From the NCBI GenBank assembly GCA_030377915.1, contig JAUCFZ010000009.1:1-36120 (forward strand): a stretch of 36,120 bases of DNA, written 5' to 3'. The DNA comes from Clostridiaceae bacterium HSG29 (GTDB taxonomy: Bacteria; Bacillota; Clostridia; Peptostreptococcales; Acidaminobacteraceae). A model generated the notes under the pieces. It saw only the letters and a list, made by a program, of their open reading frames with translations. It was not told where the DNA came from and made no database searches. Below, piece by piece: positions 20,596 to 35,597 of the stretch. Position 1 is the stretch's first letter. Every line of letters begins with the position of its first letter. The translations under genes and the position numbers were made by a program.

Positions 20596-20909
20596 GTTTA
20601 GGAAAGTGCGTTCTGAATTACAACTAGTGACAATTAATTCAGCTAATTTAAGGTGCCATGACGTATCTAAATATCTCCAGATTTTTTAATATTAGATATC
20701 TTAATACTATATTAATGTATAAATAATGATTAATTAAAGGATTGTATTTAATGAATAAAAATGAGATAATTAAAAAATATCCTAAAAACATTAATTGTTA
20801 AAAAAATAACAGAAAAATGATGTTTTAATAATGTTTAAGAATACAAAAATTTGGTATATTTAAGAAAGCAAAGTTATATTAGTAATTGATTTATAAAGGT
20901 AGGGATAAA
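20596..20909. other. Intergenic region upstream of the chemotaxis cluster
   Basis: About 310 bases without a convincing gene. It holds a 7-bp stem (CTGAATT at 20613-20619 with AATTCAG at 20636-20642) and an imperfect 14-base inverted repeat (20663-20676 with 20694-20707; GTAT and ATATCT arms pair around a 4-base internal loop). A 16-codon frame starts at ATG 20751 after a poor ribosome site and is not called as a gene. The cheB promoter lies at the 3' end. Confidence 0.5.
20851..20880 (+). promoter_or_regulatory. Probable sigma-A promoter for cheB-cheY
   Basis: TTGGTA (20851-20856), an 18-base spacer and TATATT (20875-20880; TTATAT one base earlier is equivalent). It lies 30 bases before the cheB ATG. 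No clear sigma-28 (flagellar-type) element was seen. Confidence 0.5.
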
Positions 20910-21947
20910 ATGAGTCCACGAAAAATTAAAGTAATAGTTGTTGATGATTCGAAATTGTTTTCAAAATTCTTAAGTGAAAAACTAAATGAGGATAATTATA
21001 TTGAAGTTGTTGGTATTGCAAAAGATCCTTATGAAGCTCGAGATAAAATTTTATCATTAAAACCCGATGTATTAACATTAGATGTTGAAATGCCTAAAAT
21101 GGATGGTATTGAATTTTTAAAGAAATTATTACCACAATATCCAATTCCAGTAATTATGGTGAGTTCGGTTAATGAAAAAGTATTTGAGGCATTAGAAGCA
21201 GGAGCTGTAGATTTTGTGGATAAGCCGAGTGGTAAAACGCCTGAGGATTTAAGAAAATTTGTTAAAAAATTAATAGAAAGTATAAAAATTGGAGTTGTTT
21301 CTAAACAAAGAAGGATTCCGATAAGAAACAATGAAAGTATGAGTCGAGAAAATAAGAATGTAGATCGTGAAATTATAAAATCAAGAATGATAGTAATTGG
21401 TGCATCAACTGGAGGAACGAATGCTTTGAAGGAAATTATTACATCTCTTCCAAAAGATTTTCCTCCAATAGTAATTGTGCAACATATGCCACCTGTGTTT
21501 ACAAATTTATATGCAAAAAGATTAAATAAGGATAGCAAATTAAATGTTGTTGAAGCTGAAAATGGTCAGATAATTGAACCAAATAATGTGTATATTGCCC
21601 CTGGTGGATTTCAAATGGAAATAAAAAAATCTAGAAAAGGTTACTATTTATCTATTAATGATGGTGAGAACGTAAATGGGCATAAACCTTCGGTTGATGT
21701 TATGTTTAATTCAGTTTGTGAAAATGTAAAAGAAGATGTAATTGGCGTGATTTTGACAGGAATGGGAAAAGATGGAGCGTATGGATTATTGAATCTAAGA
21801 AATAATGGAGCTAAAACTATCGGTCAGGATAAAAAAACTAGTATAGTATATGGAATGCCAAAAGTAGCATATGAAATTGGTGCAGTAGAAATTCAAAAGC
21901 CCTTATCAGAAATTCCGAATACATTGTTTAAGTTGTTAAAGGAGTGA
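20910..21947 (+). CDS. cheB: Chemotaxis response regulator protein-glutamate methylesterase CheB
   Basis: A 345-residue CheB, removing methyl groups from chemoreceptor glutamates (and deamidating glutamines) to reset sensitivity. The N-terminal receiver has Asp12-Asp13, phospho-acceptor Asp58 (VLTLDVEMPKMDG) and KPS near 106. A basic linker (120-158) joins it to the esterase domain with triad Ser166 (IGASTGGTNA), His192 (VQHMPP) and Asp288 (TGMGKDGAYG). ATG 20910 is preferred over TTG 20886, because AAAGGTAGGGAT lies between them. It opens the che cluster, working against CheR encoded near the end. Confidence 0.96.
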   Translation: MSPRKIKVIVVDDSKLFSKFLSEKLNEDNYIEVVGIAKDPYEARDKILSLKPDVLTLDVEMPKMDGIEFLKKLLPQYPIPVIMVSSVNEKVFEALEAGAVDFVDKPSGKTPEDLRKFVKKLIESIKIGVVSKQRRIPIRNNESMSRENKNVDREIIKSRMIVIGASTGGTNALKEIITSLPKDFPPIVIVQHMPPVFTNLYAKRLNKDSKLNVVEAENGQIIEPNNVYIAPGGFQMEIKKSRKGYYLSINDGENVNGHKPSVDVMFNSVCENVKEDVIGVILTGMGKDGAYGLLNLRNNGAKTIGQDKKTSIVYGMPKVAYEIGAVEIQKPLSEIPNTLFKLLKE

Positions 21948-21951
21948 TAAT

Positions 21952-22305
21952 GTGAAGACTGTGTTAATAGTAGATGATGCAATGTTTATGAGAAGTTCAT
22001 TAAAGCAGATGTTAAATGGGAGTGATTATGAAGTTATTGGCGAAGCAAGTAATGGGGAAGAAGCTATTGAAGCATATATAAAATTGTCTCCTGATATTGT
22101 AACAATGGACATAACAATGCCTGTAATGGACGGAGTTACAGCAGTAAAGGAAATTATAAAATTAGATGAGAATGCAAACGTTATAATGATTTCAGCTATG
22201 GGACAACAAGTCATGGTTTTAGAAACAATAAATGCTGGAGCAAAGAATTTTATTATTAAACCATTTGCAAAAGAAAAAGTAATGCAGGTTTTTGATACAA
22301 TTTAG
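21952..22305 (+). CDS. cheY: Chemotaxis response regulator CheY
   Basis: A 117-residue single receiver domain that, when phosphorylated by CheA, would bind the flagellar switch. The acidic pair is Asp8-Asp9, the phospho-acceptor Asp53 (DIVTMDITMPVMDG), Ser81 (MISAMGQQ) is the switch residue and Lys103 (FIIKPF) is conserved. The start is GTG 21952 with AAAGGAG just upstream; an ATG two bases earlier is followed at once by a stop. It begins four bases after cheB. AMGQQVMVLETINAGAKNFI resembles the Firmicute CheY type. Confidence 0.93.
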   Translation: MKTVLIVDDAMFMRSSLKQMLNGSDYEVIGEASNGEEAIEAYIKLSPDIVTMDITMPVMDGVTAVKEIIKLDENANVIMISAMGQQVMVLETINAGAKNFIIKPFAKEKVMQVFDTI

Positions 22306-22332
22306 TAACAAATATTTTGCCTGAATATTCTA

Positions 22333-22352
22333 AAAATATTTATAAATATTTT
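22333..22352 (+). terminator. Weak AT-only hairpin after cheY
   Basis: AAAATATTT and AAATATTTT arms flank a two-base centre, with a poor T tail. It may attenuate transcription between cheY and cheA. Confidence 0.3.
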
Positions 22353-22366
22353 GTATCTTCTTTATG

Positions 22367-22396
22367 TTGAGAAGAAATAAGAATATATTATATAAA
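22367..22396 (+). promoter_or_regulatory. Possible promoter for cheA
   Basis: TTGAGA (22367-22372), an 18-base spacer and TATAAA (22391-22396) in the 236-base gap between cheY and cheA. Confidence 0.42.
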
Positions 22397-22458
22397 ATAT
22401 TAGTATTATGATAATTATATATTAGAGAATATTGTTAATAGTAGTAAAGGAGGATAGT

Positions 22459-22561
22459 TTGTTTACAGGCGGTATTGCATCTTTTATATAAAAATAATTA
22501 AAGAGAGGGGGAAGTTGATTTGATATTTAGTCAACGAAAAAATGAGTGGAAAAGTAAATGA
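22459..22561 (+). other. cheA leader with two possible TTG-started micro-ORFs
   Basis: Two very short frames follow good ribosome sites in the cheA leader. The first starts at TTG 22459 after AAAGGAGG (22446-22453) and encodes ten residues (MFTGGIASFI), ending at 22491. The second starts at TTG 22520 after AGAGGGGG (22504-22511), encodes 13 residues (MIFSQRKNEWKSK) and ends at 22561, overlapping the cheA start at 22542. The cheA ATG itself has only CAACGAAAAA before it. Whether these frames are translated is unknown; the arrangement suggests translational coupling. Confidence 0.35.
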
Positions 22562-24599
22562 TTCAATGGTTGAGTTATATTTATCTGAAGCATATGAAAT
22601 AATTAATAGTTTAGAGCTTCTTATAATAGAAAGCGAAGAAACAAAATCCTTAGAAAATAATATTGATATTATATTTAGAAATATGCATACAATTAAAGGG
22701 AATTCAATGATGATGATGTATGATTCGATTGCGGGAATTGCACATAAGATTGAAGATTTATTTGATTTTATTAGAGCTAATAAAGATGTAGAAACCGATT
22801 ACTCAATATTAGCAGATATTGTATTAAGTGCAATAGATTTTATTAAGGAAGAATTAAATAAAATTGAAAATGGAATCCCAGATGATGGAGATCCAGAAGC
22901 TATTATTGATAGTGCAATGCAATATTTAGAATCATTAAAATTTATGAATCCAGATTCAAATGAAATTTCAGAAGAAAAAACTAAAAAAGAAGTTAAGTAT
23001 TATATTGCTTCTACAAACAAGAAGGAAAAAAGTGATTATACCAATTATTTTGTACATTTACAATATTATGATGATATTGAAATGGCAAATATAAGGGGGT
23101 TAACTGCTTTAAAGAAAATTGAAAGTTTTGGAAATGATATTTATTCAAATCCTAAGGAAATTTTAAAATCAGAATCATCTGAATTTATTAAAGAAAAAGG
23201 TATTTCATTTATTTTTAAAACTGAGAAAAAGCATGAATATGTAAATTTAACAGTAGAGAAAATTGCATTTTTGAAAAATTTTGAACTTAAAAAAATTAAT
23301 GAGAAAAAATACAATGATTATCGAATTGATTTTGATAATGAAAAAGATGTTTTAGAAAAGGAAGAAGATTTTAATGAAGATGTGATTGAAGATGTGAAAG
23401 TAAAGAATATTAAAAAAGCAGTAAAAGAAAATAGAAAAGTTGCATCTCATATGAGTACAAATATAAAAGTTGATTTAGAAAAAATTGATTATCTTATGGA
23501 TTTAGTTGGAGAATTAGTAGTATCAGGATCAATGGTAAATGAAGAAAGAAATGATGAAAATACAGATGTTGAAATGACAATGGCAGAAAGACAATTAAAT
23601 CGAGTAATTAATGAATTACAAGATGCAGTAATGTCAATAAGAATGGTTCCATTAAAACTTACATTTCAAAAGATGAAAAGAATAGTAAGAGATACAAGTA
23701 AAAAAGTAAAAAAGGAAATTGATCTGAAAATAATTGGTGAAGAAACAGAAGTGGATAAGAATGTAATTGAAAAATTAGGCGATCCATTAATGCATATAAT
23801 TAGAAATTCAGTTGATCATGGAATTGAAGATGCTGAAGTAAGATTAAACTATAATAAGACTAAAATCGGAAATATTACATTAGCAGCAAAACAAACAGCA
23901 GGGAATGTAATAATAACAATAAAAGATGATGGTGGTGGATTAGATAAAGAGAGAATATTAGATAAAGCCAGTAATAAAAAAATGTTAATAAAACCACGCA
24001 CTGATTATACAGATGAAGAGATATATATGTTATTATTTGAGCCAGGTTTTTCAACAAATGAATCTGTTACAGAATTATCAGGTAGAGGAGTAGGATTAGA
24101 TGTAGTTAAACAAAATATTAAAGCATTAAATGGCACAGTTGAAGTAAGAAGCCAGCTATATAAAGGCACAGAATTTATTATAAAAATTCCTTTAACATTA
24201 GCAATTATTAACGGTGTTTTAATAGAAGTTTCAGATTCGATATTTATTATTCCAACTGTATCAATTATAGAATCATATGCAATGATTGATCAAAAAGTAT
24301 TTGTTAATGGTGATGGGAATGAGATGATAATGATACGTGATGAAGTATATCCATTACTGAGATTAAATACAAGATTTGCGATTAATGAGGAAAAATGTAA
24401 TGATAGTGGAATAATTACTATGGTTGAAAATGAAAACAGGAAAATATTAATTCACAGTGATAGAATAATTGGAAAACAGCAAGTAGTTGTAAAACATTTA
24501 TCAGGTTTTACAAGGAAAGTAAATGGAATTTCTGGTTATGCATTGCTAGGGGATGGGAGGATTAGTTTTATACTAAATCCATCTGATTTATCAACATAG
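22542..24599 (+). CDS. cheA: Chemotaxis histidine kinase CheA
   Basis: A 685-residue CheA, which phosphorylates CheY and CheB in response to receptor state. P1 phosphotransfer domain has His49 in FRNMHTIKGNSMMM. A diverged P2-like region spans about 145-265, followed by an acidic/lysine linker. P3 dimerisation domain begins near 305 (VDLEKIDYLMDLVGELVV). P4 ATPase shows the N box (LMHIIRNSVDHGIED), G1 (IKDDGGGLD) and G2 (LSGRGVGLDVV). P5 CheW-like domain fills the last 130 residues. No ribosome site lies just before ATG 22542, and no in-frame start exists upstream before a stop. cheW follows after 12 bases. Confidence 0.96.
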   Translation: MSGKVNDSMVELYLSEAYEIINSLELLIIESEETKSLENNIDIIFRNMHTIKGNSMMMMYDSIAGIAHKIEDLFDFIRANKDVETDYSILADIVLSAIDFIKEELNKIENGIPDDGDPEAIIDSAMQYLESLKFMNPDSNEISEEKTKKEVKYYIASTNKKEKSDYTNYFVHLQYYDDIEMANIRGLTALKKIESFGNDIYSNPKEILKSESSEFIKEKGISFIFKTEKKHEYVNLTVEKIAFLKNFELKKINEKKYNDYRIDFDNEKDVLEKEEDFNEDVIEDVKVKNIKKAVKENRKVASHMSTNIKVDLEKIDYLMDLVGELVVSGSMVNEERNDENTDVEMTMAERQLNRVINELQDAVMSIRMVPLKLTFQKMKRIVRDTSKKVKKEIDLKIIGEETEVDKNVIEKLGDPLMHIIRNSVDHGIEDAEVRLNYNKTKIGNITLAAKQTAGNVIITIKDDGGGLDKERILDKASNKKMLIKPRTDYTDEEIYMLLFEPGFSTNESVTELSGRGVGLDVVKQNIKALNGTVEVRSQLYKGTEFIIKIPLTLAIINGVLIEVSDSIFIIPTVSIIESYAMIDQKVFVNGDGNEMIMIRDEVYPLLRLNTRFAINEEKCNDSGIITMVENENRKILIHSDRIIGKQQVVVKHLSGFTRKVNGISGYALLGDGRISFILNPSDLST

Positions 24600-24611
24600 G
24601 AGAGTGAAGAA

Positions 24612-25166
24612 ATGACAAATGATTTTGATAGTATGGATGAGATATATGAAGCTGAAGAGGAAAGTAGTATAATAAAATATTTAACATTTTTGCTTGAAGA
24701 AGAAGAATATGGACTTGATATAAAGTATGTAAATGACATTATTCAATTTCAAAAAATCACAAAAATGCCAGACCAGCCTGAATATATAATGGGAGTAATA
24801 AACCTAAGAGGGAATATTATACCTACTATGGACATTAGAAAAAGATTTAATAAAAAACAGATAGAATATAATGATAGAACATGCATAATAGTTGTAGAAA
24901 TGCATGAAGAACAAGTAGGGTTAATAGTAGATACTGTATCAGAAGTATTAGCAATAGAAAATAATAATATTTCAGATGCACCTAGATTTAATAATGATTT
25001 TCATAATAAATATATTTCAGGAATAACAAAGAATAAAGAAAAAGATGATCAAATAGTAATTTTATTAGATTGTCAAAAATTATTAAAAGAAGAGCAAATT
25101 AATGAAATTAAAGAAAATGAAAATTTAGTTCTTGAGGGAGGAAAAACAAATGATGAAGGAAAATAG
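24612..25166 (+). CDS. cheW: Chemotaxis coupling protein CheW
   Basis: A 184-residue CheW that bridges CheA and receptors. The SH3-like double barrel is visible from residue 18: [20 protein letters not shown], then [28 protein letters not shown], the core receptor/kinase-binding segment. It is a little longer than usual, with about 15 extra acidic N-terminal residues and a Glu/Lys-rich C-terminal tail. AGGAGAGTG precedes the ATG. Its final 17 bases overlap the receptor gene. Confidence 0.94.
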
Positions 25167-27927
25167 TATTATTAAGAAAATATTTAATGGAGTTTTTACA
25201 TTATTATTAGTATTTGCTTTAGAAATGATATACGTTTATTTTCAAATTAGAGAGTTAAGTGGAGCAGGTGGTGTGGTTTTAATAATTTTTGCTGGTTTAG
25301 CAATTGCATTAATTATTGCATGGGTAATTTATAAGAATATTAGTAAATCAGTAGAGAATAATGAGAAAGAAGTTTTAAATATTACTAAAGAAATTGCATT
25401 AGGAAATTTTAATACTGCTATTAATACAAATTCAAATAATATGTTTAATGAATTGTTAAAAAATTTAAAAGAAATTACTAGTAATTCTAAATCACAAGAA
25501 ACAGCTATTAATAAAATAATTAATGGGGATTTAGATTTAAATATTGCTCCAAAATCTGATAAAGATAATATGACAATACAAATATTAGAACTGAGAGAGA
25601 TGTTAAGTAATATTCTAGATGAGACTGAAAAAAATAGTATTGAAATAATGCATGGCGATCTTGGCTCTAGAATAGATGATACTAAATATAGCAATGGCTG
25701 GGAAATTTTAATGAATAATATTAATAATATCTCGGTTAGCTTTGAAAAATTAATAAAAAGTGTGCCAGTTACACTAGCTATATTTGATAAAGAAGATAAT
25801 GTGAAATATGTTAATGATTTTGGTCTTAATTACATTGGGAAATCGTTAGAAAATGCTAAAACTAGCAAATGTTATGAATTATTTAATACAGGAGATTGTA
25901 ATACCGATAGATGTGGTTGTAAAATAGCAAGAGAGCAAAATAGAGTTGCAAATTCAGAAACTCAAGCAACTATTAATGGCAAAGTATTTGATGTTAATTA
26001 TAGTTCTACAGCATTGAAAGATACTGACGGAAAAATAATTGGTGCGTTTGAAATAATTAGTGATCAGACTGAAATATTAAATAATCAAAGAGTAAATAAA
26101 AAACGAGCAAAATATCAAGATAATGAAGTGAAAAAATTAACAGCAGGATTAGAGCAACTTGTTAAGGGAGATCTTATATTTGAAGCTGAATTAGCAGAAT
26201 TCGATGACGATACAAAAGATATTGCTGAAAATTTCGAAGTATTAAAAGATAAAGTGTTAGTTTTGAGAGATACATTATCTGATATTTTATCAGCAACTGA
26301 AAAAACAAGTAATGAAATAATGCATGGAAATTTAATTGATAGAATAGATGAAAGTAAATATATAAATGGTTGGAAAGTTTTAATGAATAATATTAACACT
26401 ATTTCTGTTAGTTTTGAAAAATTAATAAAAAGTGTGCCAGTTACACTAGCAATATTTGATGAAGAAGATAATGTGAAATATGTTAATGATTTTGGTTTGA
26501 ATTTGACAGGAAAATCACTTGGAAATGCAAAAATGCATAAATGTTATGAATTATTTAATACAGGAGATTGTAATACCGATAGATGTGGTTGTAAAATAGC
26601 AAGAGAGCAAGATAGAGTTGCTAATTCATCAACGCAGGCAAATATCAATGGTGAAATTTATGATGTTAATTATGATTCGGGTCCATTAAAAAATAATGAT
26701 GGAAAAATAATTGGTGCATTTGAAATAATTAGTGATCAGACAGTTATTGAGAATAATAGAAGATTATTAGAAAAAAGAGGAAAATATCAGGATAATGAAG
26801 TTTCAAAATTAGTAGTAAATTTAAATGAATTATTAAAAGGTAATTTAAGATTAGAAACTGGAATAGAAGAATTTGATGAAGATACTAGTGAAATTGCTAA
26901 AAACTTTAAAGAAATTAATGATAGTTTAGGAGAAAGTACTACAATCATTGCAGGATATGTTAATGAAATTTCAAATGTTTTACAAGAAATTGGAAATGGC
27001 AATTTAAATCAGGAGGTATCGAATGATTATAGAGGAGATTTTGCAGAAATTAAAGTTTCATTAAATCAAATTCTAGATAATTTAAATGAAGCTATGTCTG
27101 AGATAACTATTGCTGCTGATGAAGTTGCTACAGGTTCTAATGAAGTAGCAAAATCGGCTGAAGATTTATCTCAAGGATCAACAGAACAAGCAAGTGCAAT
27201 TGAACAAATTAATAGTTCAATTATAAATGTGGCTGATCAAACTAATAAAAATGCAGAAAATGCTAAAGATGTTAATAAAAAGAGTAATAATGTAATAAAA
27301 AGTGCTGAAGAAGGAACAGAGAAAATGAATGAAATGATTGATGCAATGGATCTAATTAATAAATCATCAAAGAATATTGGGAAAATCATTTCAGTAATTG
27401 ATAATATAGCATTCCAAACAAATATACTTGCTTTAAATGCAGCTGTAGAAGCAGAACGAGCAGGTAAATATGGTAAAGGATTTGCAGTTGTAGCTGAAGA
27501 AGTTAGAAATTTAGCGGGAAGAAGTGCAAATGCAGCAAAAGATACTACTGAGTTAATAGAGGATTCAATTGATAAAATTGAAGCCGGTACGAAAACTGCT
27601 GAGCAAACTGGAGTAGCATTAAAAGAAATTGTTACAGGAATAAAAGAAGTGTCGACAATAATTGAACAAATTGCAATTGCTTCAGATGAACAGGCAGTAG
27701 CAGTAGGAGAAATAAATGAAGGATTACAACAAGTGACTGATGTTACACAATCAAATACTGCAACAGCAGAAGAAAGTTCTGCAGCAAGTGAGGAAATGAG
27801 TTCTCAAGCAGAGATATTAAACGAAAGAGTATCTACATTTGAATTAAGAAATACTAAAAAAAGAACTAAAACTACAAATAATAAAAAAGCTAAAATTGAT
27901 TTAGGCGATGATTTCGGTAAATATTAA
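25150..27927 (+). CDS. Methyl-accepting chemotaxis protein with duplicated HAMP/PAS-like units
   Basis: A 925-residue chemoreceptor. Two hydrophobic helices near the N-terminus (about 8-26 and 36-56) are joined by only about ten residues, so there is no extracellular sensor domain. The cytosolic part has HAMP-like segments and two PAS-like units, each with a Cys cluster C-x8-C-x4-C-x-C (Cys241/250/255/257 and Cys465/474/479/481). The C-terminal signalling coiled coil contains the conserved tip [37 protein letters not shown]. The units repeat with a 672-bp (224-codon) period. ATG 25150 is chosen because AGGGAGG (25135-25141) lies eight bases upstream; it overlaps cheW. Cytosolic redox, metal or ligand sensing is inferred. 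Confidence 0.93.
25600..26775 (+). repeat. In-frame tandem duplication, 672-bp period, inside the chemoreceptor gene
   Basis: Two copies of a HAMP-like plus PAS unit lie in direct order, the first at about 25600-26100 and the second at about 26272-26775. Anchors keep the same offset: TTTGAAAAATTAATAAAAAG at 25741 and 26413, and a 72-base stretch identical at 25867-25938 and 26539-26610. Outer limits are approximate. The linker KRxKYQDNEV recurs after each copy. Confidence 0.88.
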
Positions 27928-27938
27928 GGTTGTGGAAT

Positions 27939-28745
27939 ATGATTGAAATAACAAATGAAGAATTTAATGTACTAAAGAAATTTGTTTATAATGAAATTGG
28001 AATTAGTTTAAAAGATTGTAAAAAAAGCATGATTGATTCGAGATTTCAATCTATTCTTTTAAGAGAAAACATTTCAAATTATACTGAATATTTCAATCAA
28101 AAATTACAAAATAAGAAATCAAAGGATTATGAAGAATTTATTCATAAAATAACTACACATCATACATTTTTTTATAGAGAAGATAAACATTATGAATATA
28201 TGGTTAATTCAATTTTACCTTGGATTAAAACTACCGTGAAGGATTATGATGTAAGAATTTGGTCAGCTGGATGTTCAACAGGAGAGGAACCATATACTTT
28301 AGCTTTTTATCTAAATGGATATTTTGAAAAAAAAATATGGGACAAGAAAATTTTAGCAACAGATATTTCTTTAGAAGCTTTGGATAAAGCTTCTAAAGGA
28401 GTTTATTTTAAAAAAAGTTTAGAGAGGTTGCCAAATGAATATTTAGAGAAATATTTTAATAAAGAAATCAATGAATATAAAGTAGATAGAAAAATAAAAA
28501 ATGAAATTATATTTAGAAAATTTAATTTAATGGATGATTTTAAATTTAAAAAGAAATTTCACGTTATATTTTGTAGGAATGTAATGATATATTTTAATCA
28601 AAAAACTAGAGAAAAATTAGTAAAGAAATTTGAAAATTATTTAGTAGATGGCGGATATTTAATTATTGGAGTTACAGAATCGATAACAAATTTAGATGGT
28701 CATAATATGAAATTAATAAAGCCATCGATTTATCGGAAAATATAG
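27939..28745 (+). CDS. cheR: Chemotaxis protein methyltransferase CheR
   Basis: A 268-residue CheR, methylating receptor glutamates with SAM and opposing CheB. The N-terminal helical CheR_N domain covers about 1-70 and ends near THHTFFYREDKHYEYM. The SAM-binding loop is IWSAGCSTGEEPYTLAFYL, and FHVIFCRNVMIYFNQKTRE is the conserved later motif. ATG 27939 is chosen over TTG 27930; AAGG (27926-27929) lies at a suitable distance from the ATG. It begins 11 bases after the receptor gene, its likely substrate. Confidence 0.95.
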   Translation: MIEITNEEFNVLKKFVYNEIGISLKDCKKSMIDSRFQSILLRENISNYTEYFNQKLQNKKSKDYEEFIHKITTHHTFFYREDKHYEYMVNSILPWIKTTVKDYDVRIWSAGCSTGEEPYTLAFYLNGYFEKKIWDKKILATDISLEALDKASKGVYFKKSLERLPNEYLEKYFNKEINEYKVDRKIKNEIIFRKFNLMDDFKFKKKFHVIFCRNVMIYFNQKTREKLVKKFENYLVDGGYLIIGVTESITNLDGHNMKLIKPSIYRKI

Positions 28746-28753
28746 GTGATATT

Positions 28754-31645
28754 ATGCAATTAATTGATGTGAAAAAATGTAATGTTATGAATTCCTTTAA
28801 TGAAAATTTAATTATTATTGATAATGAATTTAAAATAAAATATATTAATGAAAATGCAATTAAAACCATTGAAGTAAATAGTAAAGTCTATAATGAATCA
28901 ATTAATAATGTGCTTAAAATTTACGATTTACTTACCAAAGAAAGAGTTGAAATTAATTACAATAAAATTATTGAGAAAAAATTAAAACGTGGATTGCCTC
29001 AAAATTCAATTATTTATACCAATAAGGGATTTAAATATATCTCTGCTTCATTCACGCCTATTAAGGAAGGTTTAGGTGTTTTAATAGTATTTAGAGATAT
29101 TACAAAAATAATGAGTCGAGAACAAGTTTTTCGTGAATATACTGAAGCTGTAAATAACACACCAATTGGTATTGTAATTACAAATGATAAATTTGGAATA
29201 GAGCATTATAATCCTATGGCAAAAGAACTTGGAAATTATTCTGAAGATATTTATGGGAAAAACATTTTTAATTATCATATGAATGATAATAATAAAATAA
29301 ATTTTCAGCAAATGCTTGATAAATTAAAATTAGATAAATCAGTAAGTGAACGGATTTTAATTGATAAGCAGAATAATGATGAAATTTGGTTTAATATTGA
29401 AATTGTAAAAATGGAATTTTTAAATCAAAAAAAATATATTATGCTTTTTAATGACATTTCTGAGAAAGTAAAAAACGAGAAAAAAATAATTGAAGAAAAA
29501 ATGTTATTAGACAAAATGTTTTCTGAAGTAAATATTGGAATTATTTTATTAGACAAAAATTTTGAAATAAAAAAGATAAACGAATATATTGAAAAACATT
29601 TTAATATAGTGTTTGAAGAAAGAAAAAAAATTGGGGAAATAGTTAAAAGCAATGAAGAATCAATTAATAATTTAATTGAAGATATTTTAAATGTAAAAAG
29701 TTATAAAGAAAGAGAAAGAAAAGAATATATATTAGATATTAATAATAATAAATTTTTTACAGAAATTGGTATTATTAAATTTTTTAGAAATGGTAAAGAG
29801 AATTATTTACTTTCGATATTTGATTATACTAGAAAGAAATTAATTGAGGAGAAACTTAATAAAAGTGAAATAAGTTTAAATTTATTAGCAGAGAATATGT
29901 TAGATGCAATTACACAAGTAAACTTAAATGGTGAAATAATTTATGCTTCTCCATCTAATTATTTGCTATTTGGGTATAAAGCGGATGAATTAATTGGAAA
30001 AGAGTTTGATTTTTTCTTATATGAAAAAAACACATTAAATTTAAAGGAAAAATATAATGAATTAATTCAAAACAATGATGTAGTAGATGAATATTTTGTA
30101 ATTAAAAAAAATGGCGAAGGAATTTGGATTGAAATAAAGTTTTCATTAGTTAACGAAAATGGGAATGAAAGTATTGTCTTGGTTAGTAGGGATGCTACAA
30201 TAAGAATAAATGCAAGAAAGAAATTAATTAAAGCAAAGCAATTAGCAGAAAAAAATGATAAAATGAAAGGCGAATTTTTAGCTAATACAAGTCATGAAAT
30301 TAGAACTCCATTAAACGGTATAATTGGAATGTCTTCAATAAGTTTAATGGATGATCTACCTGATAATGTGAGAGAGAATGTTAAATTAATTAAATCTTCT
30401 GCTGAATCATTAATGAATATTATTAATGGAATTTTAGATTTTTCAAAAATTGAAGCCGGTAAAATGGATATGGTTGAGAATGAAATGAATTTAAAAGAAG
30501 AAGTAGAAAATGTATATAAAAATTTTCTATATAGAACAAAAGATAAAAATATCGATTTAATATTGGAGTATCAGTTGATAAATGATATGTATTTAGGTGA
30601 TGTAGGTAGAATTAAGCAAATATTAATAAATATTATTGGAAATGCAGTAAAGTTTACTTCTAAAGGATCTGTAAAAATTGTTGTATCAAAAGTTAATGAA
30701 AACATTGAATCGGATGATATTCGTTTTGAAATCATTGATACTGGGATAGGAATATCAAAAAAAAATAGAGAAAGTATTTTTGAAAGTTATTCTCAAGGTG
30801 ATGGTACATATACTAGAAAATTTGGAGGAACTGGTTTAGGTTTAAGTATATGTAAAATGTTGGTTGAGAAGATGAGAGGAACTATTAATCTTAAAAGTAA
30901 AGTTGGAGAGGGTAGTAATTTTAAAATTGTTTTACCTTTAAAAAGAGTTGAACTTATTGAAGAAATTTCTGAGGAAATAGAAAAGATAGTTGAAACAGAA
31001 TCGATTAAAATTTTATTAGTTGAAGATGATATTATTAATAGAAAATTTTTAAGAAGACTTCTAGAAAAATTAGGGCATACTGTAGATATAGCTGAAAATG
31101 GTATTGTTGCAATAAATAAAGTAATGGAGAAGGAATTTGATTTAATTTTAATGGATATTCAATTACCTGAAATGGATGGTATTGAAGTAACTAAAGTGAT
31201 TAAAAATGAATTAGGAATTACAGATATTCCAATCATTGCGATTACTGCACATGCAAGGGAAGAAGATGAAAAAATAATTTTAGAAGGTGGTCTCGATGAT
31301 TATATTTCAAAACCTATTTCAATAATGAATTTAAGTATGATTATTAATAGAAATATAAAGAGTAAAGTTGATAATACTAAAAGTATTATAGAAAATGCTT
31401 TTACTAAAACAATTTCTAATAATGAATATAAGAAGTTTGATATTAAAAAAATTGAATTACTAATTCAGAATAAAAATAGAGAGTATTTAGAAAAAGAATT
31501 AGAAAATTTAAAACAATTTTTTAATAATGAAGATGATAAGGAATTTAGAAATATTATTTTCAAATCAATAATGTCTTTACGGAGAAAAGATTATAATAGT
31601 ATTAAGAAAAACATGGGAATAATAGCTAAATTTTTTAATGAGTAA
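28754..31645 (+). CDS. Soluble multi-PAS hybrid sensor histidine kinase
   Basis: A 963-residue hybrid kinase without membrane helices or signal peptide. Four PAS-like domains cover roughly 10-115, 125-235, 250-360 and 375-485 (YASPSNYLLFGYKADELIG in the last). HisKA follows with His514 ([15 protein letters not shown]), then the ATPase domain with ILINIIGNAVKF, DTGIGIS and FGGTGLGLSICKML. A receiver starts near 750 with Glu-Asp-Asp and phospho-acceptor Asp801 (LILMDIQLPEMDG). The last 70 residues form a helical tail shared with the kinase at 33351. AGGTGAT precedes the ATG eight bases after cheR, so it belongs to the chemotaxis operon. Signal unknown. Confidence 0.93.
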   Translation: MQLIDVKKCNVMNSFNENLIIIDNEFKIKYINENAIKTIEVNSKVYNESINNVLKIYDLLTKERVEINYNKIIEKKLKRGLPQNSIIYTNKGFKYISASFTPIKEGLGVLIVFRDITKIMSREQVFREYTEAVNNTPIGIVITNDKFGIEHYNPMAKELGNYSEDIYGKNIFNYHMNDNNKINFQQMLDKLKLDKSVSERILIDKQNNDEIWFNIEIVKMEFLNQKKYIMLFNDISEKVKNEKKIIEEKMLLDKMFSEVNIGIILLDKNFEIKKINEYIEKHFNIVFEERKKIGEIVKSNEESINNLIEDILNVKSYKERERKEYILDINNNKFFTEIGIIKFFRNGKENYLLSIFDYTRKKLIEEKLNKSEISLNLLAENMLDAITQVNLNGEIIYASPSNYLLFGYKADELIGKEFDFFLYEKNTLNLKEKYNELIQNNDVVDEYFVIKKNGEGIWIEIKFSLVNENGNESIVLVSRDATIRINARKKLIKAKQLAEKNDKMKGEFLANTSHEIRTPLNGIIGMSSISLMDDLPDNVRENVKLIKSSAESLMNIINGILDFSKIEAGKMDMVENEMNLKEEVENVYKNFLYRTKDKNIDLILEYQLINDMYLGDVGRIKQILINIIGNAVKFTSKGSVKIVVSKVNENIESDDIRFEIIDTGIGISKKNRESIFESYSQGDGTYTRKFGGTGLGLSICKMLVEKMRGTINLKSKVGEGSNFKIVLPLKRVELIEEISEEIEKIVETESIKILLVEDDIINRKFLRRLLEKLGHTVDIAENGIVAINKVMEKEFDLILMDIQLPEMDGIEVTKVIKNELGITDIPIIAITAHAREEDEKIILEGGLDDYISKPISIMNLSMIINRNIKSKVDNTKSIIENAFTKTISNNEYKKFDIKKIELLIQNKNREYLEKELENLKQFFNNEDDKEFRNIIFKSIMSLRRKDYNSIKKNMGIIAKFFNE

Positions 31646-31659
31646 TTGGAGGTGTTTAA

Positions 31660-32052
31660 GTGAAAATTTTAATAGCAGAAGATGATTATGTAAGCAGAGA
31701 ATTTCTATTGAGATTTCTTTCTAAATATGGAGTTTGTGATGTGACAATTGATGGTAAAGAAGCGGTTGAAGCATATATTATTTCCCTAGAAATGGAAGAA
31801 TATTATGATCTTATTTGTTTAGATATTATGATGCCGGAATTAGATGGAAAAGAAGTTTTAAAAGTGATAAAAGAAATGGAAAAAGTAAATGAATTAGAAG
31901 AAAAGAATAAATCAAAAATAATTATGATGACAGCATTAAATGACACCGAAACTGTAAAAGGAACTTATAAAGATGGTTCACATGCTTATGCTGTTAAACC
32001 ATTAGACACTGATAAAATTGTAAGGGTATTAGAAAAATTGGAATTGATTTGA
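31660..32052 (+). CDS. Single-domain response regulator (receiver only)
   Basis: A 130-residue stand-alone receiver without output domain. It has Glu7-Asp8-Asp9, phospho-acceptor Asp55 (YDLICLDIMMPELDG), Thr in MMTALN and the conserved Lys in YAVKPLD. A loop before the phospho-site (ISLEMEEYY) is longer than in CheY. It starts at GTG 31660 after TTGGAGGTG, 14 bases downstream of the hybrid kinase, and is its likely partner. It is paralogous to the receiver at 35594 and only distantly similar to the cheY product. Stop is TGA. Confidence 0.92.
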   Translation: MKILIAEDDYVSREFLLRFLSKYGVCDVTIDGKEAVEAYIISLEMEEYYDLICLDIMMPELDGKEVLKVIKEMEKVNELEEKNKSKIIMMTALNDTETVKGTYKDGSHAYAVKPLDTDKIVRVLEKLELI

Positions 32053-33315: not shown

Positions 33316-33350
33316 ATGAAATAATCTATAAATTTATGGAGGAAACAAAT

Positions 33351-35597
33351 ATGAAATCTAATAAAATAGTTAAAGATACACTAATACTTGAAAGTATGGA
33401 TGATGGTTGCATAGTTATTAATATATTAGGAGAAATAGATTTTATAAATAATGCTGCCAAGAAAATATTTAAAGTGAATGATGTAATTTCTAAGAATATT
33501 AGTGAAGTTATTTTTTTAAGAAATAAAATTACAGGTGAAAATATTGATTTATCAATAATTTATAGAAATGAGAAATATAAAAGTTTTGGTTTGGAAAAAG
33601 ATACAATTGTTATTGATAGTATAAAAAATGAAAAGTATATTTCTGCAACTATTTCATCAATTTTAAATGATATGAATAGTATTATTGGATATGTAATAAT
33701 TTTTGGGGATGTAGATAGATTTGTTAAAACAGATAATAAAATAAAGAAGGAAAAAGACTTTCTTTTAGGAATATTAGATAATATTCCAACAATGTTATGG
33801 AAGAAAGATATTAATCATTATTTTGAATATTTTAATGAAAAAACAAAAGAAGAATTTAAAATAAATGAACCACCGGAAAAATTAAAAAAATTTTCTAAAA
33901 AAGTTTTTGTTAATCAAAAAGAGCTTTATAATAAATATTTATTAAACTATGAAAAAAGAAAAACATTTGATTTTGAATTAAATAGTATAATTAATGATGG
34001 AATTAAAAAATTTTATTATGGAAAAGCAGCACCATATTATAATTCAGAAAATATTTTTGATGGTTATATTGGAAGATTAGATGATTTAACTGAAAGAAAA
34101 ATTATTGAAAAAAAATTAATTTGTAATAATGAAAAATATTATAAATTATTAATGAATTTAGGGAAAGGTTTTTATTATGGAAAAGTAATTTATAATAAAA
34201 ATCATGAAATAATAAATATGTATATAGATGAAGTAAATGATATGGTTTCTGAGATTTTTGGCGATAAAAACGAATTATTTAAAGGGAAGCTATTATTTAA
34301 TGATATAAATAATAAAAATATTTCAGATGAAGAATTCATAAATATTATGGAAGAAATAATAAATAGCGAAAAAACTGTAAGAAAAGAATATTATATTGAA
34401 AGAATAGATAAATGGTTATCATTTTTCTTTTATAGTCCAATTATAGATCATATTGGAGCTATTATTACAGATATAGATTTTGAAAAAAAAGCTAGAATTA
34501 AATTACAAATTGCTAAAACTAAAGCTGAATCAGCAAATAAAGCAAAAGGTGAATTTTTAGCAAATATGAGTCATGAAATTAGAACGCCGTTAAATGGAAT
34601 TTCAGGGATGATTGATTTAACGTTAAGAACTAGTTTAAATGAAGAGCAAACTAATAATTTAAAAGTTGCTAAAACATGTGTTAATTCGCTTTTAAATATT
34701 ATAGGTGATATTTTAGATTTTTCTAAATTAGAAGTTGGCAAAATTTCTTTTAACTATGAAAAATTTAATATTAGAGATTTTATTAATGATATGGAGAAAA
34801 GATATAGGTTTCAAATTGAAGCAAAAAAAATTACTTTTTTATTGAATATTGATACCTTATTACCAAAGTATTTTTATGGAGATAAAAATAGAATTAGACA
34901 AGTACTTTCTAATTTATTAGAAAATGCTATAAAATTTACTAAAAAAGGAAAGATTCTTTTAATTGTAAGAAGAAGTAAAAATTTTGAAAATAATCATATA
35001 ATCATATTTAATGTTATTGATAGTGGAATTGGAATTTCTGAGAGTAATCAAAATAAAATATTTGAAGTTTTCTATCAATTAGATGGCGCACTTGCAAGAA
35101 CGCATGATGGAAATGGATTAGGGCTTGCAATATCAAAACAATTAATTGAAATGATGGGTGGAAGAATAAGTGTTAGAAGTGAGATAAATAAAGGAAGTAA
35201 TTTTGAAATAGTTTTACCATTTGCTAGAGAAATTTTAAAAGATAAATTAATAGTTGATAAAATTGATTATTTAAAATATACAAATAATATAATTGAATCA
35301 GATATTGAAGTATTAGAAGAAAAATATTCAGTTAATTTTATAGAAAAAGAATTAAAATATTTAAAAGAATCAATTGAGTTAGAGAATTATGAATTAATTG
35401 AAATATTAACTTTTGAATTGAAAAATTACTTTTTAAAATATGATATGGATGAATTGAAAAAACTTATATTTAAAATTCAATTAGCAGCTAGAAGGTTAGA
35501 TATAATTGAAATGAAAAAAAATTATATTATTTTAGAAAAAAAATTTGAAGTATATGAAAAAAATAATTTTATTATTTCAGAGGAGGAAAAAAGTTGA
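33351..35597 (+). CDS. Soluble PAS-containing sensor histidine kinase
   Basis: A 748-residue kinase without membrane segments. Three PAS-like regions span roughly 10-115, 140-250 and 265-380 (the second contains [19 protein letters not shown]). HisKA has His408 ([19 protein letters not shown]). The ATPase domain has [18 protein letters not shown] and [13 protein letters not shown]. No receiver follows; instead there is a helical, histidine-free tail of about 90 residues, homologous to the tail of the hybrid kinase at 28754. ATG 33351 is chosen because GGAGG lies at 33338-33342. The stop overlaps the next gene's TTG start by four bases, so kinase and receiver are translationally coupled. Confidence 0.92.

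What the first reader, a model, noticed from the sequence alone, without database searches (positions are those of the whole stretch)
25600..26775. Recent in-frame tandem duplication of a sensor unit inside a chemoreceptor
Two HAMP-like plus PAS-like units repeat with an exact 672-bp (224-codon) period. One 72-base stretch around the cysteine cluster is identical between copies, while flanking parts have drifted. Receptors often carry several PAS domains, but a near-identical adjacent pair with identity concentrated on the cysteine cluster suggests recent duplication or gene conversion with selection on that cluster. The repeat could also permit copy-number change.
Basis: seen in the sequence. 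Interest (0 to 1): 0.6.

Follow-up and report, generated by a model that had tools for sequence, protein, structure and literature searches.

The report
Doubled cysteine-PAS sensor in a chemoreceptor
A bacterial chemotaxis receptor carries two tandem copies of the same cysteine-rich internal sensor; the doubling is real but not recent, one patch was probably copied from one half to the other later, and unrelated bacteria have doubled the same module in the same way.

Summary
Inside one 925-931-aa chemoreceptor gene (25132/25150-27927), a 672-bp, 224-codon unit occurs twice head to tail (25588-26259, 26260-26931). Each unit is HAMP-like helix + PAS + HAMP-like helix. Copies are 72% identical in protein, with one exact 72-bp stretch over a four-cysteine cluster (C-x8-C-x4-C-x-C). 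All eight cysteines of the protein lie in the two clusters.

"Recent" is not supported. Synonymous sites in the unit flanks are saturated (18 differences, 18.5 expected), while congeneric orthologues stand at 0.46 of saturation. The 72-bp patch has no synonymous difference where 7.8 are expected at saturation (permutation P about 0.001), so a later conversion tract there is likely but not proven.

Sensor-module relatives in the same family carry one unit, so the doubling probably arose in this lineage. Deltaproteobacteria, including Geobacteraceae, carry the same doubled module (224-226 aa period, 14 further pairs). One (L098) shows a clear conversion tract: 90 identical codons between diverged flanks, with discordant trees. 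No three-unit protein was found.

Most likely: an Aer2-like poly-HAMP/PAS receptor of an accessory che cluster, sensing intracellular redox or a metal through two stacked Cys4-PAS modules. The ligand is inferred, not shown.

The parts
25150..27927 (+). Methyl-accepting chemotaxis receptor gene; ATG at 25150 behind a GGGAGG-like ribosome site, overlapping the end of cheW (mechanical ORF starts at TTG 25132)
25180..25341 (+). Two adjacent transmembrane helices with almost no periplasmic loop (hydropathy)
25588..26259 (+). Repeat unit 1: HAMP-like helix + Cys4-PAS + HAMP-like helix, 224 codons
26260..26931 (+). Repeat unit 2, same make-up, 672 bp downstream
25756..26076 (+). PAS domain 1 (aa 209-315 of the ORF from 25132)
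26428..26748 (+). PAS domain 2 (aa 433-539)
   Evidence: model of unit 2 with pLDDT 93.6
25867..25938 (+). 72-bp stretch identical to 26539-26610; encodes [24 protein letters not shown], cysteines 247, 256, 261, 263
26539..26610 (+). Second identical 72-bp stretch; cysteines 471, 480, 485, 487
26947..27087 (+). Last HAMP domain before the signalling hairpin (Pfam HAMP_2)
27283..27747 (+). MCP signalling domain
20886..21947 (+). cheB
21952..22305 (+). cheY-like response regulator (by sequence)
22542..24599 (+). cheA of an accessory chemosensory cluster (a second, congener-shared cheA lies on contig C266)
24612..25166 (+). cheW
27930..28745 (+). cheR

Best explanation
The gene encodes a membrane-anchored, cytoplasm-sensing chemoreceptor of an accessory che operon (cheB-cheY-cheA-cheW-mcp-cheR). 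A single HAMP-PAS(Cys4)-HAMP module, present once in related receptors of the same bacterial family, was duplicated in tandem and in frame in this lineage. The copies then diverged until the flanking HAMP-like helices were synonymously saturated. Later, a short gene-conversion tract, or several, re-homogenised part of the PAS core including the 72 bp over the cysteine cluster. Mechanistically, each PAS most likely holds a redox cofactor or metal (or forms a redox disulfide) through its four cysteines. Its state is passed through the alternating HAMP helices of the dimer to the signalling hairpin, so the two modules act in series on one output to CheA. Shown: repeat, domain order, all Cys confined to the clusters, operon, single-unit relatives, synonymous pattern. 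Inferred: conversion in this gene, the nature of the signal, serial action.
For: Repeat and domain order. The copies are each other's nearest relatives in PAS core (99*) and flank trees (100/100), 83% identical in the core versus at most about 42% to the relatives compared. Cys4-PAS receptors of the same family carry one unit (G003, G004, G016, G028, G061); none of the other 296 genomes sampled from the order showed a double. Age: synonymous differences relative to saturation are about 0.97 in flanks, 0.51 in core, 0 in the 72 bp, against 0.46 for congeneric orthologues. Longest identical codon run 24, permutation P 0.001. Conversion in this receptor type is demonstrable in L098: 90 identical codons over the PAS, flank of copy 1 groups with other copy-1 flanks (95/95), core pairs within the protein (100/99). 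Cys motif: three Cys invariant in 48 units from many phyla. PAS fold modelled at pLDDT 93.6, closest solved folds include FAD-PAS of Aer and NifL. Serial HAMP-PAS-HAMP signalling: Aer2 (PMC3570549).
Against: The core deficit as a whole is only P 0.026. At the congener-level synonymous rate the chance of zero changes in the patch is 0.017, so an unusually constrained patch is not excluded. No cofactor or signal was tested; the fourth Cys is Ala in two relatives (L012, L013).
Confidence: 0.6

Rival explanations
1. Old duplication plus strong purifying selection only, with no gene conversion: the cysteine patch stayed identical because the protein is constrained and by luck at synonymous sites.
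For: Core conserved/flank diverged is also seen at protein level in unconverted deltaproteobacterial doubles. AT-rich codon bias makes identical codons common (per-codon identity of many residues 0.7-0.9).
Against: Purifying selection on protein does not protect synonymous sites: 0 seen versus 7.8 expected at saturation or 5.1 at the repeat's mean rate; permutation P 0.001.
Confidence: 0.27
2. A truly recent tandem duplication with fast, relaxed divergence of the flanks.
For: Core 87% identical in DNA, no close double relatives.
Against: Flank synonymous sites are saturated (18 versus 18.5 expected) and the mean is above the congener distance; relaxed selection on protein does not speed synonymous change.
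Confidence: 0.08
3. Assembly artefact of a metagenome bin (false expansion or strain mixing).
For: The window is a contig of a fragmented genome (266 contigs, 86% complete); the unit is longer than short reads.
Against: The copies differ at about 28% of residues in frame without stops, and homologous doubles with the same period occur in other assemblies, including a named strain (L063, Geomonas oryzae S43).
Confidence: 0.03
4. A copy-number-variable (contingency) repeat that tunes sensing.
For: An in-frame 672-bp direct repeat with a 72-bp exact core could recombine (inference).
Against: 15 tandem pairs and 81 distinct singles, no triples; 72% protein identity shows long stable coexistence.
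Confidence: 0.02

Closest known systems
Aer2-type PAS/poly-HAMP chemoreceptors (Pseudomonas aeruginosa Aer2: HAMP1-3, heme PAS, two more HAMPs, signalling domain; PMC3570549)
   Same: Cytoplasmic PAS inserted in a chain of HAMP helices, followed by HAMPs and an MCP hairpin.
   Different: Two PAS units instead of one, four cysteines per PAS and no histidine or tryptophan in PAS 1, and a membrane anchor (Aer2 of P. aeruginosa is soluble).
Double HAMP-PAS(Cys4) chemoreceptors of Geobacteraceae and other Deltaproteobacteria (e.g. L055, L059, L063, L098)
   Same: Same Cys4-PAS family, same doubled module, period 224-226 aa, same order into an MCP hairpin.
   Different: Separate duplication by tree; those read in full have a large periplasmic sensor region; copies there mostly group by position.
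Single-unit Cys4-PAS chemoreceptors of the same bacterial family (G003, G004, G016, G028, G061)
   Same: Same module and flanking HAMP helices, about 34-42% identical.
   Different: One unit, and encoded on other contigs than the accessory che cluster.
Fe-S cluster sensing PAS such as NreB (from general knowledge)
   Same: PAS with four cysteines.
   Different: Different cysteine spacing; cofactor here untested; chemoreceptor, not kinase.

Membership tests
Methyl-accepting chemotaxis protein | MCP signalling hairpin (PF00015) | tested here: met
   E 4e-48, aa 718-872
Methyl-accepting chemotaxis protein | Linked che genes | tested here: met
   cheB, cheY-like, cheA, cheW, cheR adjacent
Aer2-type heme PAS/poly-HAMP receptor | HAMP chain - PAS - HAMP-HAMP - MCP order | tested here: met
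   Domain order from alignment and Pfam, with the HAMP-PAS part doubled
Aer2-type heme PAS/poly-HAMP receptor | Heme-ligating histidine in the PAS | tested here: not met
   PAS 1 contains no His at all; PAS 2 has one, next to the first Cys (sequence)
Aer2-type heme PAS/poly-HAMP receptor | NCBIfam Aer2 (Vibrio) model cut-off | tested here: not met
   260 bits against a cut-off of 1200; only the signalling end matches
Fe-S (NreB-like) PAS | Four cysteines conserved in the PAS | tested here: met
   C-x8-C-x4-C-x-C; three invariant in 48 units
Fe-S (NreB-like) PAS | Bound iron-sulfur cluster | not testable with these tools
   needs purified protein
PAS fold | PAS fold | tested here: met
   pLDDT 93.6 model; VIA Z 13.2 at 3.2 A over 106 residues to Aer PAS 8dik, Z 12.6 at 2.5 A over 115 to NifL PAS 2gj3
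Intragenic gene conversion | Bounded tract with depressed synonymous divergence and tree discordance | tested here: inconclusive
   Window: synonymous run P 0.001 but no outgroup for discordance. L098: both met

The most novel reading that the evidence does not exclude
A widespread Cys4-PAS/poly-HAMP receptor family repeatedly and independently doubles its HAMP-PAS module with a nearly fixed period (224-226 aa) and keeps the PAS cores alike by intragenic gene conversion while the HAMP linkers diverge, implying selection for exactly two matched sensors in series, for example for cooperative or two-electron redox sensing.
Probability: 0.2. Interest if true: 0.6.

Novelty: new variant of a known kind. 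Interest (0 to 1): 0.35.

Why it matters
It gives a clean natural example of how multi-sensor receptors arise (module duplication in a HAMP-PAS chain, apparently more than once) and of conversion between sensor domains inside one gene (clear in L098, likely here). It also flags a four-cysteine PAS family, spread over many anaerobic bacteria and methanogens, for which no characterised ligand was found in the library searched.

Tried and rejected
1. Heptad-register argument (224 = 32 x 7): rejected, because other doubles have 225 or 226 residues. 2. Shared ancestral double with Deltaproteobacteria: disfavoured, the window copies are sisters on long stems in both trees. 3. A donor copy elsewhere in the genome: none found. 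4. Shared rare codon ACC in the patch as independent proof of conversion: rejected, it also fits plain inheritance from the duplication. 5. Protein-level contrast of core and flank as evidence of conversion: rejected, it also occurs in unconverted doubles. 6. Does the che-cluster receptor slot in relatives hold an ancestral form? Relatives have poly-HAMP or other receptors without Cys4-PAS there. 7. Single-sequence structure of both units: failed, pLDDT 34. 8. PDB sequence relatives of the PAS: none at E 1. 9. First genome-contig scan with the whole receptor found nothing; the alignment scan worked. 10. Literature on a Cys4-PAS chemoreceptor or on conversion between PAS domains: nothing specific found in the library.

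Full report
OBSERVATION. The receptor ORF runs 25132-27927 (931 aa); the likely start is ATG 25150 behind GGGAGG, overlapping the end of cheW. Offset 672 is the sole strong self-diagonal (88% in the best 300 nt; next best offset 48%). The aligned units are 25588-26259 and 26260-26931. The exact 72-bp run is 25867-25938 = 26539-26610. It is the strongest direct repeat in the window and no third copy exists in the held genome. The genome is 86% complete, 2.09 Mb in 266 contigs, so absence elsewhere is not absolute.

ANATOMY. Two adjacent transmembrane helices with almost no external loop (hydropathy) lead into HAMP-like helices, then [HAMP-like + PAS + HAMP-like] twice, a last HAMP and the MCP hairpin. 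The only eight cysteines of the protein are the two clusters, C-x8-C-x4-C-x-C. The cysteines sit in the helical and loop segment between the first two and the last three strands of the PAS, where PAS domains usually hold cofactors (general knowledge; secondary structure). PAS 1 has neither His nor Trp, which argues against the usual heme and FAD types. AlphaFold with 48 sequences gives a confident PAS (pLDDT 93.6); closest solved folds include the FAD-PAS of Aer and NifL, a shared fold only.

GENOMIC SETTING. cheB, cheY-like, cheA, cheW, receptor, cheR, then a hybrid histidine kinase and a response regulator. The genome has a second cheA on C266, shared with the only held congener G001, in which neither this cheA type nor this receptor was found. 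Relatives in the family with this cheA type have other receptors between cheW and cheR (poly-HAMP or short, without Cys4-PAS), or none; where the signalling part was compared it is about 51-56% identical.

RELATIVES. Cys4-PAS units occur in Clostridia, Deltaproteobacteria, Bacteroidota, Nitrospirota, Methanosarcinaceae and others. In the same bacterial family and order those read are single. In Geobacteraceae and other Deltaproteobacteria, doubled units with a period of 224-226 aa recur: 14 pairs besides the window, against 81 distinct single units in the same set, and no triple. A different arrangement, four or five PAS with a period of about 122 aa and no HAMP-sized spacer, occurs in Desulfobulbus-like proteins.

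AGE. Against codon usage of this window, the repeat shows 38 synonymous differences where 57.6 are expected at saturation (0.66). By part: flanks 18 of 18.5, PAS core 20 of 39.1, 72-bp patch 0 of 7.8. Orthologues shared with the congener stand at 0.46 with 92% protein identity. The duplication is therefore probably older than the split of the two held species of the genus, not recent. The comparison is rough, since genes differ in rate and there is only one congener.

CONVERSION. Permuting synonymous differences within degeneracy classes gives P 0.001 for an identical run of 24 codons, and P 0.026 for the core deficit as a whole. At congener-level divergence the chance of a clean patch is 0.017. 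A conversion tract is likely (I put it near two in three) but cannot be confirmed without a related double. The process does occur in this receptor type. In L098, 90 codons over the PAS are identical while both flanks are strongly diverged; its copy-1 flank groups with other copy-1 flanks (95/95) while its two PAS cores pair together (100/99). Most other deltaproteobacterial doubles group by position, so conversion is occasional, not constant.

ORIGIN. The window copies are sisters in the core tree (99*) and in the flank tree (100/100), far from the deltaproteobacterial doubles. With single-unit relatives in the same family this favours an independent duplication. Ancient shared doubling followed by complete homogenisation is possible but needs more steps, since the flanks too would have had to be homogenised.

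MECHANISM. By analogy with Aer2, where a PAS lies in a HAMP chain and adjacent HAMPs take different conformations that give opposite outputs (PMC3570549), each PAS would shift its neighbouring helices and two units in series would sum or gate each other. The four-cysteine site suggests metal, Fe-S or thiol redox sensing; this is inference. Filing as Aer2 is not warranted: order met, heme ligand and NCBIfam cut-off not met.

VERDICT. Real feature; lineage-specific, fairly old in-frame duplication of a known kind of module, probably with later partial conversion; moderate interest, mainly because the same doubling recurs in unrelated bacteria.

Noticed in passing
L098:636-1931: Deltaproteobacterial double HAMP-PAS receptor with 90 identical codons across the PAS and diverged flanks: a clear intragenic conversion tract.
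   Followed up: yes
L113, L114, L116, L119, L124, L125, L127, L128, L129: Proteins of mostly about 1030 aa with four or five tandem Cys4-PAS domains at a period of about 122 aa, without HAMP-sized spacers and without the MCP motif searched for.
   Followed up: no
window 20886-32052: Accessory chemosensory cluster (cheB, cheY-like, cheA, cheW, mcp, cheR, hybrid kinase, response regulator) whose cheA type was not found in the only held congener.
   Followed up: partly
L170, L171, L172, L173: In relatives the same operon slot holds receptors with long poly-HAMP chains and no PAS, so the receptor in this slot is swapped between lineages.
   Followed up: partly
window 28754-31645 and 33336-35597: Two histidine kinase genes, the first a hybrid with a receiver domain and several PAS domains, with response regulators at 31660 and 35594 next to the che cluster.
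   Followed up: no
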